Assembly: GCF_900161835.1 (NCBI RefSeq)
Contig: NZ_LT897836.1
Span: 1,054,001-1,118,000 of the forward strand
DNA length: 64,000 bases
Source: Sodalis endosymbiont of Henestaris halophilus
GTDB lineage: Bacteria; Pseudomonadota; Gammaproteobacteria; Enterobacterales; Enterobacteriaceae
Reading direction: 5' to 3'
Shown: positions 1-4,219 of the stretch, in pieces
Layout of the letters: every line of letters starts with the position of its first letter
Numbering within the stretch: position 1 is the first letter of the stretch
Notes under the pieces: generated by a model
What the model was told of the DNA's origin: nothing
The model's input: the letters and a program-made list of their open reading frames with translations, nothing else
Database searches by the model: none
Translations under genes and position numbers: made by a program

Positions 1-608
1 ATTGAGTACGATAAGCAGTCTTCATTTCTACTTTGCATGATTACAGATAACGATTTATCATTTCCAAAAATAACTCGTCGTAAAGACAAGCAAAGGCAAT
101 AACGATGTTATCCATATTTGCCGCAATCCATTTGATGATGTTATACACATCGGAGCAAGTGAACAATTAACATTGCAGATAGGGATAGCCTATACAATGC
201 ATAATGCAAATAATACCTAATCCAGAACAGTTGAGATTTACTAACGTGTTATATCATCTATATCACCCTATCACTAGGAACTTGATAGTATGAAGCATAT
301 TGTTGCTACGGTAAATTATGCACCGCTCGTGATTGATTCCCCAATCATTATGTATGCTATGCTAGCTAACTATAAAACCTTTAGGGTCCCACCTTAACTG
401 ATTAGTCCCATTGTGAACGTCTCTGCGCTCACGTTATTACCAGCGTCAATGATGAAGTTCGTTTTGTAACTAACACTCTTGCTCTTTAAGCAATTTATTT
501 TGCTGATAGCGCCTGACTTAGTTATGATATAAATCATATAGGTAATAACAATAACTACCATATATATGGTATCAGATAAGCCGTAAAATCCTTTACTACG
601 AGTAAACC

Positions 609-1154
609 ATGATGGTAAATGATTATAACCTGATTTGGATCGATCTGGAAATGACCGGGCTAGATCCAGAACGCGATCGTATTATCGAAATAGCAACGCT
701 GGTCACCGACGCCAATCTAGCTATTCTTGCAGAAGGTCCGTTGCTAGCAATACATCAATCTGACTCTCATCTGGCGATGATGAATGAATGGAATTTGCGT
801 ACTCATACTGCCAGTAGATTAGTTAACCGGGTTCGGTACAGTCAGCTGAATGAAGACGATGCAGTGGCGCAGATACTGCCATTTTGGGCTAAATGGGTAC
901 CTGCCGGCAAGTCGCCGATTTGCGGTAATAGTATAGGACAGGATCGGCGCTTCTTATTCCGCTATATGCCAGCGCTCGAAGCATATTTTCACTACCGTTA
1001 CCTAGATGTCAGTACGATAAAAGAACTGGTTCGTCGTTGGAAGCCAGAAATTCTGGCCGGGTTGAAGAAAAAAAATAAACATCAGGCGCTAGACGATATC
1101 CGCGAATCTGTTGCAGAACTAGTCTATTATCGCAAACATTTTATCTGTTTGTAA
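609..1154 (+). CDS. orn: Oligoribonuclease, copy 1
   Basis: This 3'-to-5' exoribonuclease degrades 2-5 nt RNA fragments, the last step of mRNA turnover, in the cytoplasm. The 181-residue protein has the usual family length. The DEDDh exonuclease residues are visible: D12 and E14 (in WIDLEMTG), D112 (in GQDRRFLF), H158 and D163 (in [10 protein letters not shown]). Two ATG codons stand in a row at 609 and 612; the second matches the usual N-terminus slightly better, and no clear Shine-Dalgarno decides between them. The protein is identical over all 181 residues to the copy at 2757-3302. A run of eight A at about 1068-1075 lies in the coding sequence. This copy sits in the left arm of the inverted repeat, away from its ancestral neighbours. 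Confidence 0.95.
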
Positions 1155-1299
1155 TCTCCTGCGGTAAAACTGGATTGACGTGGTTATGTTTGCGGCAATC
1201 GCATTAATAAAAAACTAATTTCGTCGCGGAAGATCTTGCAGCTAGCGATATTTGTCGTAAAATGCTTCTTTTAATACCAAGACTTCATGTTAGGTCCAT

Positions 1300-1374
1300 G
1301 CGGGAATAGCTCAGTGGTAGAGCACAACCTTGCCAAGGTTGGGGTCGCGAGTTCGAGTCTCGTTTCCCGCTCCA
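1300..1374 (+). tRNA. tRNA-Gly(GCC), copy 1
   Basis: Cloverleaf with acceptor GCGGGAA/TTCCCGC, anticodon stem-loop around TTGCCAA giving anticodon GCC, T-loop GTTCGAGTC, and encoded CCA at 1372-1374. It lies 145 bp downstream of orn, as in E. coli, where tRNA-Gly genes follow orn. Confidence 0.97.
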
Positions 1375-1755
1375 TTTTTCATTATTACCCTCTGCAATAT
1401 GCTTATTTTTACATGAAAATTAAGGTAAGCTATTATAATACTCCCTTATCGTTAATATAACTTTGGTTTAGCGCAAAATAATACCTTGTCATTATTTATC
1501 AAGGCGCTTTGGTCATTAGATGCAAAGCGGTCGGTTGATACTTGTTTATTATTGAATGTTAGTTAGGAAACATTATTAATTTCATGAATAATATAGCGGT
1601 TTCTATATGTATGAATGTTAACCTGGCTTAACGATCGCACGATCAACTATGCTGCAGCAATAAATATAATAAGGAGGATATTGCAACCAGTTTTAGGTAT
1701 GCATTTACATGCCTGGTGCGATTTGCGCGTACGTCACAGCCAGCTTAAGTGCGAT

Positions 1756-2155
1756 GCGTATCGATACGGCGTTCTTTGTATCAAATAATAAACTAAAAAA
1801 CCTATGTTTTTTATTTGGGTTTGTTGCTACGCACAACTATTAGTTAGCAGGATAACAATAGATATTAGGAAAGCATAGTGTTTTAAGTTACGATGTTTAT
1901 GTGCGTAATAGTAGCGAGATTCTGGTACAACATCGATGAAAGTGTATAGCGGCCGAATCTTACAACATCAGAACGAACCGCCTAATAAACTTAGGAAGTT
2001 AAAGGAAAACCAATTTTACATTCTGAGTAACAATCTCATTGTGCAGTTATTAAGATCGTTTTCACCCGCGGTGCGATCAATAAAATATCTGATTCCTTGT
2101 ACTAGGACTAATGTCCTGTGCCTGCTATAAAAGAACTTAACACAGCCGATATGGT
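1756..2155. other. Unique 400-bp spacer of the inverted repeat
   Basis: This is the single-copy centre of the palindrome. It contains a short open frame at 1936-2130 that resembles nothing I know and has no convincing ribosome binding site. The sequence is AT-rich and I see no gene, terminator or mobile-element end in it. Confidence 0.7.
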
Positions 2156-2536
2156 ATCGCACTTAAGATGGCTGTGACGTACGCGCAAATCGCACCAGGC
2201 ATGTAAATGCATACCTAAAACTGGTTGCAATATCCTCCTTATTATATTTATTGCTGCAGCATAGTTGATCGTGCGATCGTTAAGCCAGGTTAACATTCAT
2301 ACATATAGAAACCGCTATATTATTCATGAAATTAATAATGTTTCCTAACTAACATTCAATAATAAACAAGTATCAACCGACCGCTTTGCATCTAATGACC
2401 AAAGCGCCTTGATAAATAATGACAAGGTATTATTTTGCGCTAAACCAAAGTTATATTAACGATAAGGGAGTATTATAATAGCTTACCTTAATTTTCATGT
2501 AAAAATAAGCATATTGCAGAGGGTAATAATGAAAAA

Positions 2537-2611
2537 TGGAGCGGGAAACGAGACTCGAACTCGCGACCCCAACCTTGGCAAGGTTGTGCTCTACCACTGA
2601 GCTATTCCCGC
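2537..2611 (-). tRNA. tRNA-Gly(GCC), copy 2
   Basis: Exact reverse-complement copy of the gene at 1300-1374, including the encoded CCA. It lies downstream of the ancestral orn copy. Confidence 0.97.
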
Positions 2612-2756
2612 ATGGACCTAACATGAAGTCTTGGTATTAAAAGAAGCATTTTACGACAAATATCGCTAGCTGCAAGATCTTCCGCGACGAAATTAGTTTT
2701 TTATTAATGCGATTGCCGCAAACATAACCACGTCAATCCAGTTTTACCGCAGGAGA

Positions 2757-3302
2757 TTACAAACAGATAAAATGTTTGCGATAATAGACTAGTTCTGCAA
2801 CAGATTCGCGGATATCGTCTAGCGCCTGATGTTTATTTTTTTTCTTCAACCCGGCCAGAATTTCTGGCTTCCAACGACGAACCAGTTCTTTTATCGTACT
2901 GACATCTAGGTAACGGTAGTGAAAATATGCTTCGAGCGCTGGCATATAGCGGAATAAGAAGCGCCGATCCTGTCCTATACTATTACCGCAAATCGGCGAC
3001 TTGCCGGCAGGTACCCATTTAGCCCAAAATGGCAGTATCTGCGCCACTGCATCGTCTTCATTCAGCTGACTGTACCGAACCCGGTTAACTAATCTACTGG
3101 CAGTATGAGTACGCAAATTCCATTCATTCATCATCGCCAGATGAGAGTCAGATTGATGTATTGCTAGCAACGGACCTTCTGCAAGAATAGCTAGATTGGC
3201 GTCGGTGACCAGCGTTGCTATTTCGATAATACGATCGCGTTCTGGATCTAGCCCGGTCATTTCCAGATCGATCCAAATCAGGTTATAATCATTTACCATC
3301 AT
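2757..3302 (-). CDS. orn: Oligoribonuclease, copy 2 (ancestral locus)
   Basis: Same 181-residue exoribonuclease as at 609-1154, with no amino-acid difference and the same D12, E14, D112, H158 and D163 catalytic residues. It reads away from the rsgA remnant and psd, which is the usual order, so this is probably the original gene. The flanking non-coding DNA is duplicated too and is just as identical, which points to a recent duplication rather than selection on two old copies. Either copy would be enough for the function. Confidence 0.95.
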
Positions 3303-4219
3303 GGTTTACTCGTAGTAAAGGATTTTACGGCTTATCTGATACCATATATATGGTAGTTATTGTTATTACCTATATGATTTATATCATAACTAAGTCAGGC
3401 GCTATCAGCAAAATAAATTGCTTAAAGAGCAAGAGTGTTAGTTACAAAACGAACTTCATCATTGACGCTGGTAATAACGTGAGCGCAGAGACGTTCACAA
3501 TGGGACTAATCAGTTAAGGTGGGACCCTAAAGGTTTTATAGTTAGCTAGCATAGCATACATAATGATTGGGGAATCAATCACGAGCGGTGCATAATTTAC
3601 CGTAGCAACAATATGCTTCATACTATCAAGTTCCTAGTGATAGGGTGATATAGATGATATAACACGTTAGTAAATCTCAACTGTTCTGGATTAGGTATTA
3701 TTTGCATTATGCATTGTATAGGCTATCCCTATCTGCAATGTTAATTGTTCACTTGCTCCGATGTGTATAACATCATCAAATGGATTGCGGCAAATATGGA
3801 TAACATCGTTATTGCCTTTGCTTGTCTTTACGACGAGTTATTTTTGGAAATGATAAATCGTTATCTGTAATCATGCAAAGTAGAAATGAAGACTGCTTAT
3901 CGTACTCAATAAAATTGTTTACTAACATTGCGGTCTGGCTGGAATTAAAGCCGCATATTACTATCTATTATATGTATAAGCTATCAGTTGCTTGATAATA
4001 GAGCCATACCAGCAAATTAAATTAGTTATTTCTAGGAAATGCTGGTTCAGTCATACCAGTATTTTCACTAGTTAATCTGGGGTTATTCAATATGCTATTA
4101 TTAGATTACGAAAAGATTTTAATGAATCGTGTCTTCCATCATTATGGAACGCGAGCGGCATACTGTTATTAAGCAAAATATTTTAGATCCTAGGTCATTT
4201 AATTTCTTTCTTTTGTATT

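What the first reader, a model, noticed from the sequence alone, without database searches (positions are those of the whole stretch)
1..3910. Large near-perfect inverted repeat duplicating orn and tRNA-Gly
Arms of about 1755 bp, identical apart from a single mismatch seen near the inner end, face each other across a 400-bp spacer. Genes and non-coding DNA are equally identical, so the duplication is recent. Synteny (rsgA-psd) shows the right arm is the original. Such a palindrome would be unstable in most bacteria. If recA is dead throughout this genome, as at 54.6 kb, gene conversion cannot be keeping the arms alike. The left arm starts exactly at the window edge, so an assembly or contig-end artefact is also possible.
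Basis: partly seen in the sequence, partly recalled or inferred. Interest (0 to 1): 0.75.

Follow-up and report, generated by a model that had tools for sequence, protein, structure and literature searches.

The report
Self-correcting mirror-image gene duplication
A bacterium that looks like an insect symbiont, and that has lost its main DNA-recombination gene, carries an old mirror-image duplication whose outer parts have decayed while the inner 2.4 thousand bases of the two copies have recently been made identical, which suggests that nearby mirror copies can correct each other without that gene.

Summary
The window edge is no contig end. The near-identical arms are 2,452 bp (window -696..1755, 2156..4607; one mismatch; 400-bp spacer). 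Outside, decayed mirror homology continues in pieces to groESL, 11-12 kb from the centre. The block groESL-epmB-efp-epmA-mscM-psd-rsgA-orn-tRNA-Gly was duplicated head to head long ago, with reciprocal loss (groESL, epmB, efp, mscM survive left; psd, epmA right). The core holds an rsgA remnant as eroded as an outer pseudogene, yet identical in both arms: the core was recently homogenised. A neighbouring inverted groESL pair is a similar mosaic: groES differs in 25 of 97 codons, groEL in 1 of its first 500. recA is an equally eroded remnant; sbcC gave no match. Best reading: RecA-independent conversion between close inverted copies, probably fold-back template switching. Artefact or a single recent duplication is unlikely. 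The mechanism is inferred; two relatives that also gave no recA or sbcC match showed no such repeats in the stretches sampled.

The parts
1..1755 (+). Left core arm, part inside the window; continues to window -696 (genome 1053304)
1756..2155 (.). 400-bp spacer, single copy in the genome; no blastn or tblastx match to the relatives' orn loci held; its 64-aa ORF matches no Pfam family
2156..4607 (-). Right core arm, 2,452 bp, one mismatch to the left arm (1743/2168)
609..1154 (+). orn copy, left arm (oligoribonuclease, 181 aa, intact)
   Evidence: (PF00929)
2757..3302 (-). orn copy, right arm (identical, intact)
1300..1374 (+). tRNA-Gly(GCC), left
2537..2611 (-). tRNA-Gly(GCC), right
1..166 (-). 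Left-arm rsgA remnant, in-window part (matches run from 166 to -519)
3745..4430 (+). Right-arm rsgA remnant, identical to the left one
   Evidence: no RsgA profile match in the genome
4512..5408 (+). psd, intact; its first 96 bp lie in the identical core, the next ~150 bp are 93-95% like the left remnant, then it diverges
   Evidence: (PF02666)
6127..7137 (+). mscM remnant (intact mscM in the left arm, window -1450..-4806)
7517..8551 (-). epmA/genX, intact (left arm holds only remnants at -5513..-5125)
   Evidence: PF00152
9373..9845 (-). efp remnant (intact efp in the left arm, -7270..-6704)
10255..10335 (+). probable epmB remnant, 74% to left arm -8068..-7988 inside intact epmB
10902..12661 (-). 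groESL remnant, outermost mirror homology; two groESL copies stand on the left at genome 1040582-1042551 (-) and 1043413-1045379 (+)
54560..55640 (+). recA remnant, stops and frame changes, 57-61% to three intact relatives; the only RecA match in the genome

Best explanation
An ancestral block (groESL-epmB-efp-epmA-mscM-psd-rsgA-orn-tRNA-Gly) was copied head to head into an inverted duplication with arms of about 11-12 kb in a Sodalis-like genome, near the putative replication terminus. SHOWN: the mirror order, decay of the outer arms, reciprocal gene loss, and an inner 2.45-kb tract that is identical although it includes a decayed pseudogene. It follows that one arm was overwritten by the other long after the duplication and, by comparison of erosion, long after recA was lost. 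INFERRED: because the arms lie 400 bp apart in inverted order, a nascent strand at a stalled or lagging fork can fold back, anneal to the other arm, copy it and return. This needs strand annealing but no RecA; loss of the hairpin nuclease SbcCD would let the structure survive. At the psd end the copying probably ran right to left, since the right psd is intact and the left one dead. Genes within reach stay as matched pairs (orn, tRNA-Gly, groEL; also the dead rsgA); genes beyond reach diverge and one copy dies.
For: Core 2,452 bp with 1 mismatch; identity falls to 79, 67, 61 and 51% in successive 250-bp bins just outside. Not a cold spot: the rsgA remnant in the core is 59.3% to the SoCistrobi gene and the outer mscM remnant 58.6%, against about 40% for shuffled remnants. 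Single-copy ancestral order in SoCistrobi L007. Second case about 8 kb to the left: groESL inverted pair, 518-bp spacer, groES 25 of 97 codons different, groEL codons 1-500 one silent difference, difference-free run of 1,338 bp against a maximum of 557 in 100,000 uniform random placements. A third pair at 934/939 kb has a near-identical middle with more diverged ends. In 904 kb (56%) of the genome the 7 duplications found with arms <15 kb apart are all inverted. recA remnant 57-61% to intact relatives, as eroded as the rsgA and mscM remnants, so its loss long precedes the last homogenisation. sbcC: no match, control 14 of 14. Template switching homogenises short inverted repeats, shorter spacers favoured (PMC8604942, abstract and passages); drug-induced template switching at an E. 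coli quasipalindrome is largely RecA-independent (PMC6357072, passages).
Against: The mechanism was not observed. The template-switch cases seen in the papers have short arms; kb-long tracts are an extrapolation. The inverted pair at 665/669 kb has a spacer of only 2.4 kb yet is 74%. In groESL the ~0.5 kb nearest the axis is diverged while the part further out is converted, which a hairpin zipping from the axis would not predict. Over the 7 pairs identity falls with spacing only weakly (Spearman -0.64, p 0.12). Relatives G036 and G053 also give no recA match and no sbcC match, yet 200 kb of each, and 200 kb more of G053, show no local inverted duplication, so these losses are not sufficient. 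Only one genome with this duplication is at hand, so within- versus between-lineage identity could not be compared. Equal erosion of recA, rsgA and mscM is a coarse clock.
Confidence: 0.7

Rival explanations
1. A single recent inverted duplication of about 2.4 kb; no homogenisation needed.
For: Core arms almost identical in coding and non-coding DNA alike.
Against: The same mirror axis carries decayed homologous pieces for a further ~8-10 kb with reciprocally lost genes; the core ends in register inside the psd homology. A fresh duplication would not end exactly where an older mirror copy continues.
Confidence: 0.05
2. Assembly artefact: one core written twice, or a collapsed consensus written into both arms.
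For: No reads were available. Near-identical copies can be polished to identity, so the exact 1 in 2,452 could be slightly too low.
Against: The contig continues on both sides; the flanks of the two cores are diverged from each other; a second pair has a converted block bounded by diverged ends, which consensus collapse is not expected to make.
Confidence: 0.05
3. Homologous recombination proper, with a recombinase from elsewhere (unrecognised phage-type annealing protein, co-resident symbiont or host), or conversion that took place while recA was still alive.
For: RecB is intact. For Tremblaya princeps, concerted evolution was linked to recombination genes of its nested partner (PMC4479817, abstract, section 12 and passages).
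Against: The recA remnant is as decayed as the rsgA and mscM remnants while the core differs at 1 of 2,452 sites, so conversion while recA lived is unlikely. RecT-type proteins and RecFOR were not searched for, nor co-symbionts.
Confidence: 0.17
4. About the origin, not the upkeep: break rescue at the replication terminus, as proposed for Lactobacillus bulgaricus, or an IS element, as for the groESL region of Sodalis pierantonius. This is compatible with the best explanation.
For: Cumulative GC skew over the 904 kb read peaks at 1.014 Mb and TA skew near 1.12 Mb, on either side of the repeat at 1.053-1.059 Mb. L. bulgaricus terminus IRs have a unique centre of 1-8.8 kb (PMC5345009, passages). 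The S. pierantonius groESL region is duplicated between IS256 copies (PMC3914690, passages).
Against: No repeated element flanks the arms in the 904 kb self-comparison; L. bulgaricus repeats are 23-37.6 kb per arm; no dif-like site better than 20 of 28 in the part read. The skew of the whole genome was not seen.
Confidence: 0.4

Closest known systems
Duplicated regions under concerted evolution in 'Ca. Tremblaya princeps' and 'Ca. Moranella endobia' (PMC4479817: abstract, section 12, passages; PMC3620526: passages)
   Same: Symbionts with reduced genomes in which duplicated segments stay identical, non-coding DNA included. A passage also mentions an identical 386-bp inverted duplication in Tremblaya phenacola, which has no nested partner.
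   Different: In T. princeps the tracts beside the ribosomal operons are 702-899 bp and the process is credited to the partner's RecA and other recombination genes; Moranella keeps recA. Here the genome's own recA is long dead, and the pairs are local (400 and 518 bp apart), inverted and mostly protein-coding.
Template-switch correction of inverted repeats (PMC8604942, abstract and passages; PMC6357072, passages)
   Same: Arms of inverted repeats become identical; shorter spacers favoured; largely RecA-independent in the E. coli assay. The first paper's introduction says that homogenisation of long inverted repeats has also been reported many times.
   Different: The events studied there have arms of some 7-18 bp, in yeast or an E. 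coli reporter; here tracts of 1.6 and 2.45 kb in a chromosome without recA.
Large inverted repeats at the Lactobacillus bulgaricus replication terminus (PMC5345009, passages)
   Same: Head-to-head copies around a short unique centre, near the terminus (here provisional).
   Different: Ten times longer arms; no homogenised core inside decayed arms in the passages read.
groESL-region duplication of Sodalis pierantonius SOPE (PMC3914690, passages)
   Same: Same genes (groESL, yjeK = epmB by recall, efp) duplicated in a Sodalis symbiont; a benefit of extra GroEL suggested.
   Different: SOPE copies are bounded by IS256 and 99.9% alike over 13.5 kb, hence recent; here old, inverted and mosaic.
Repeats and instability in Portiera of whiteflies (PMC7821994, passages; PMC4285135, passages)
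   Same: recA-less symbiont with repeats said to be maintained by gene conversion.
   Different: Repeats there lie mostly in intergenic regions and pseudogenes and are direct as well as inverted; here genes are included, and only inverted local pairs were found in the 56% read.

Membership tests
Gene conversion / concerted evolution between paralogous segments | Identity tract with abrupt ends inside longer, more diverged homology | tested here: met
   orn mirror; groESL pair
Gene conversion / concerted evolution between paralogous segments | Identity not explained by constraint or low mutation rate | tested here: met
   rsgA remnant in the core is as eroded as the outer mscM remnant (59.3% v 58.6%, shuffles about 40%) yet identical between arms; groEL silent sites
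Gene conversion / concerted evolution between paralogous segments | Copies within a genome more alike than orthologues between genomes that share the duplication | not testable with these tools
   No other genome with the duplication found: the genus holds only G000; none of 59 others has two full orn copies
RecA-dependent homologous recombination | Functional RecA in the cell | tested here: not met
   Only a remnant with stops, 57-61% to intact relatives; RecA supplied by another organism was not testable
Template-switch correction of inverted repeats | Closely spaced inverted arms; RecA not needed | tested here: met
   400- and 518-bp spacers; recA dead
Template-switch correction of inverted repeats | Conversion strongest next to the axis, fading outwards | tested here: inconclusive
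   Fits the orn core; does not fit groESL, whose inner ~0.5 kb is diverged, nor the 665-kb pair
Template-switch correction of inverted repeats | Event seen to arise at replication | not testable with these tools
   Needs strains or reads
Terminus inverted repeat of L. bulgaricus type | Lies at the replication terminus | tested here: inconclusive
   GC-skew peak 1.014 Mb, TA-skew peak near 1.12 Mb in the 904 kb read; no good dif match
Terminus inverted repeat of L. bulgaricus type | Arms of at least 8 kb and 98% identity (the filter of that paper) | tested here: not met
   Only 2.45 kb is near-identical
IS-mediated duplication (SOPE type) | Insertion-sequence copies at the borders | tested here: not met
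   No repeated element at the borders in the self-comparison of 904 kb; decayed single IS remnants not excluded, IS families not searched

The most novel reading that the evidence does not exclude
In this recA-less chromosome a replication-borne, RecA-independent process copies kilobase tracts between neighbouring inverted duplicates and so sorts genes: those within about 2.6 kb of the mirror axis stay as matched pairs, live (orn, tRNA-Gly, groEL) or dead (rsgA), while those beyond it diverge and one of each pair dies. It would be a kilobase-scale, gene-preserving form of template-switch correction, perhaps concentrated near the terminus.
Probability: 0.35. Interest if true: 0.75.

Novelty: new variant of a known kind. 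Interest (0 to 1): 0.62.

Why it matters
Symbionts that lost recA are often thought unable to repair by recombination, and concerted evolution in Tremblaya was explained by borrowed recombination genes. A chromosome with a long-dead recA and two or three homogenised inverted pairs makes the alternative testable: that orientation and spacing alone allow kilobase-scale correction. It also gives a natural map of how far such correction reaches, and a likely example in which conversion carried a dead gene (rsgA) into both copies.

Tried and rejected
Contig-end artefact: rejected, the contig continues. Simple recent duplication: rejected on the outer mirror homology. IS origin: no repeat at the borders; the 934-kb pair has two copies in the whole genome and no match in G004, G026, G054 or G036, so it does not behave like an IS family. 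Spacers as leftovers of relatives' DNA (for example queG): no blastn or tblastx match of either spacer to the relatives' loci held; the 64-aa ORF in the orn spacer matches no Pfam family. RNA element in the arms: only the two tRNAs reach a gathering score.

A general effect of recA or sbcC loss: not supported. G036 and G053 give no match to either, but show no local inverted duplication in 200 kb each, in a further 200 kb of G053 (700001-900000), or in 20 separate 20-kb stretches (10 of each genome, each compared only with itself). For G036 the GC skew turns from plus to minus near 0.2 Mb, inside the 200 kb. For G053 the terminus is not placed: the sampled skew turns between 0.74 and 0.86 Mb, but within 700-900 kb the cumulative skew levels off at 830-850 kb and then rises again. 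The recA+ genomes G038 and G055 show no inverted pair within 15 kb (G038 one of 74 bp, 30 kb apart; G055 two short direct pairs); their samples were not matched to the terminus. sbcC is also missing from G038 and G055.

RecG: hits in G000 stay below the cut-off and the two best sit in frames of 1154 and 736 aa that I take for Mfd and PriA (sizes recalled); loss of RecG is likely, not proven. SbcD, RecFOR, RuvABC and RecT were not searched. A dif site: best 20 of 28. The mirror search at the 630-, 665-, 769-, 934- and 993-kb pairs found no extended arms, except one 36-bp piece beside the 665-kb pair. Organism name: the size and 38% GC made me think of 'Ca. Sodalis baculum' (recalled); the paper that I recall is not held, so the name is unverified. 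Five paper searches (listings seen only, for three of them 15 rows of longer lists) showed no title or abstract start on this locus; most subscription papers are not in that library.

A mistake of mine, mended: the SoCistrobi Psd query was cut in a wrong frame; one search repeats it in frame: right psd 82% over 247 of 247 residues, left only pieces (aa 1-153 and 202-236 at 40-46%), with 15-18 stops in each frame.
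Full report
WHAT IS THERE. The window is 1,054,001-1,118,000 of a single 1,622,395-bp contig, so its left edge is only a cut. The repeat finder gives arms 1-1755 and 2156-3910 around a 400-bp spacer. With the 20 kb to the left fetched, the arms grow to 2,452 bp, window -696..1755 and 2156..4607, with one mismatch at 1743/2168. Each arm holds an intact orn and a tRNA-Gly(GCC). The spacer occurs once in the genome.

THE MIRROR GOES ON. A sensitive comparison of the two sides shows homology in mirror order far outside the core: separate pieces of 66-78% identity (one 35-bp piece 89%) out to window 12,661 and -10,434, that is 10.7 and 12.4 kb from the axis. 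In a global alignment, 250-bp bins are 99.6-100% for nine bins, then 98.8, 78.9, 66.7, 60.7 and 51.2%. Further out they lie between 57.6 and 70.5%, except five bins over the epmA region (window 7906-9155) at 40-47%, which is what shuffled sequence gives (about 40%), so most homology is lost there.

THE GENES. In 'Candidatus Sodalis sp. SoCistrobi' (record title, L007) the region is single: epmB(-), efp(+), a lipocalin-like gene(-), epmA(+), mscM(-), psd(-), rsgA(-), orn(+), tRNA-Gly(+). Names follow Pfam hits for Orn, Psd, EpmA and MscM and, for the rest, sequence resemblance and E. coli gene order recalled from memory. Mapped on the two arms, left keeps intact EpmB, Efp, MscM and Orn with remnants of EpmA, Psd and RsgA; right keeps intact EpmA, Psd and Orn with remnants of Efp, MscM and RsgA (Psd redone in the right frame). 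The groESL remnant at 10,902-12,661 mirrors the intact left groESL. This is an old inverted duplication with reciprocal loss. Neither arm can be called the original.

WHY THE CORE MUST HAVE BEEN HOMOGENISED. The core includes a heavily eroded rsgA, 59.3% identical to the SoCistrobi gene in a global alignment; the outer mscM remnant is 58.6%; shuffled copies give about 40%. So the core has mutated about as much as the outer arms. Yet the two rsgA remnants are identical to each other. No RsgA profile match exists anywhere in the genome (the control rings in 10 of 14 genomes, E. coli among them). Either rsgA died once and the dead copy replaced the other, or one decayed arm was rewritten from the other later; in each case one arm was copied recently. 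The tract ends in register within psd, through about 150 bp of 93-95%. Because right psd is intact and left psd is dead, the last copying at that end probably ran right to left (inference).

A SECOND AND A THIRD CASE. groESL itself stands as an inverted pair to the left, 1,040,581-1,042,721 and 1,043,240-1,045,380, 518 bp apart, 97.5% overall, about 8 kb from the left core arm. The differences are not spread evenly: groES differs in 25 of 97 codons (16 silent, 9 not), groEL codons 1-500 in one silent codon. The difference-free run of 1,338 bp compares with a longest run of 557 in 100,000 uniform random placements of 50 differences (constraint on coding sites is not modelled there, the silent sites speak to that). 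A pair at 934,557-935,345 / 938,529-939,313 has a near-identical middle and more diverged ends; it has just two copies in the whole genome and no match in four relatives.

GENOME CONTEXT. In 904 kb read (56% of the genome; 16 matches at E <= 1e-10, low-complexity filter on), the duplications with arms less than 15 kb apart are seven pairs: orn, groESL, and those at 934, 993, 665, 630 and 769 kb, all inverted, none direct. Three outer pieces of the orn mirror are counted with the orn pair, and one 50-bp self-palindrome was left out. Identities of the seven run from 67% to 99%. The remaining matches are farther apart: two direct ones between the left-most groESL and the right-arm remnant (23-24 kb, a consequence of the two mirrors), one inverted between the other groESL and that remnant (20 kb), one direct at 124 kb and one inverted at 212 kb. 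In 200-kb samples of four other family genomes there was no inverted pair within 15 kb; G055 had two short direct pairs and G038 one 74-bp inverted pair 30 kb apart.

RECOMBINATION GENES. The only RecA match is a remnant with three stops at window 54,751-55,140. Over its length it is 57-61% identical to three intact relatives, which are 77-83% identical to each other; shuffled, it gives about 40%. It is thus about as eroded as the rsgA and mscM remnants, and its loss should long precede the last copying. SbcC, the hairpin nuclease subunit, gives no match while all 14 controls ring. RecB is intact. RecG has no match over the cut-off. G036 and G053 also give no RecA and no SbcC match and show no such repeats in the stretches examined, so these losses are permissive at most.

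POSITION. The cumulative GC skew over the 904 kb peaks at 1.014 Mb with a plateau from 0.96 to 1.05 Mb; TA skew, printed every 32 kb, is highest at 1.118 Mb. The orn and groESL pairs therefore lie near the putative terminus, as do the pairs at 934 and 993 kb; those at 630, 665 and 769 kb do not. The other 44% of the genome was not read, so the terminus is provisional.

MECHANISM. Shown: old mirror duplication; recent homogenisation of the core; a second mosaic pair; no working recA gene. Inferred: fold-back template switching between close inverted arms. From the literature: such switching homogenises short inverted repeats and favours short spacers in yeast (PMC8604942, abstract and passages); at an 18-bp quasipalindrome in E. 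coli the drug-induced form is largely RecA-independent (PMC6357072, passages); in yeast, distance and divergence limit inverted-repeat interaction except in long single-stranded regions (PMC10164571, abstract). Against: those template-switch cases are tiny; the 665-kb pair with a 2.4-kb spacer is only 74%; in groESL the part nearest the axis is the diverged part; identity against spacing is not significant for seven pairs (Spearman -0.64, p 0.12).

PRIOR ART. Homogenisation of long inverted repeats is said to be often reported (introduction of PMC8604942). Concerted evolution of duplicated segments is known in Tremblaya and Moranella and was tied to RecA-type genes; Tremblaya phenacola holds an identical 386-bp inverted duplication without a nested partner. 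Gene conversion of repeats has been suggested in recA-less Portiera. A groESL-region duplication exists in Sodalis pierantonius, but it is uniform, recent and IS-bounded. Large terminus inverted repeats exist in L. bulgaricus. What looks new is the combination: an old inverted duplication, reciprocal gene loss outside, a kilobase-scale homogenised core inside, at two neighbouring loci, with recA long dead. The searches listed no title or abstract start that reports it; most subscription papers are not in that library.

VERDICT. Real and biologically meaningful; probably neither an artefact nor a simple recent duplication. Filed as a new variant of a known kind (concerted evolution by conversion), with the RecA-independent mechanism as the open, testable part.

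Noticed in passing
L006 6582-9703 and L005 60-1379 (genome 1040582-1045379): Two intact groESL operons head to head, converted in groEL but not in groES; the GroES copies differ at 9 residues.
   Followed up: yes
genome 934557-935345 / 938529-939313 (L133): Inverted pair without a long ORF, 92.5%, near-identical middle, two copies only in the genome.
   Followed up: partly
genome 630484-637016, 665282-668793, 769514-783659, 993963-999058: Four further local inverted pairs of 67-86% identity; no direct pair within 15 kb in the 904 kb read.
   Followed up: partly
window 16001-18000 and 30001-32000: Bins of 25% and 28% GC in a region of about 38% GC; perhaps old decayed DNA.
   Followed up: no
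window 13337-14455: TyrA-like protein with only a partial match to the prephenate dehydrogenase N-domain (residues 137-205).
   Followed up: no
   Followed up: partly
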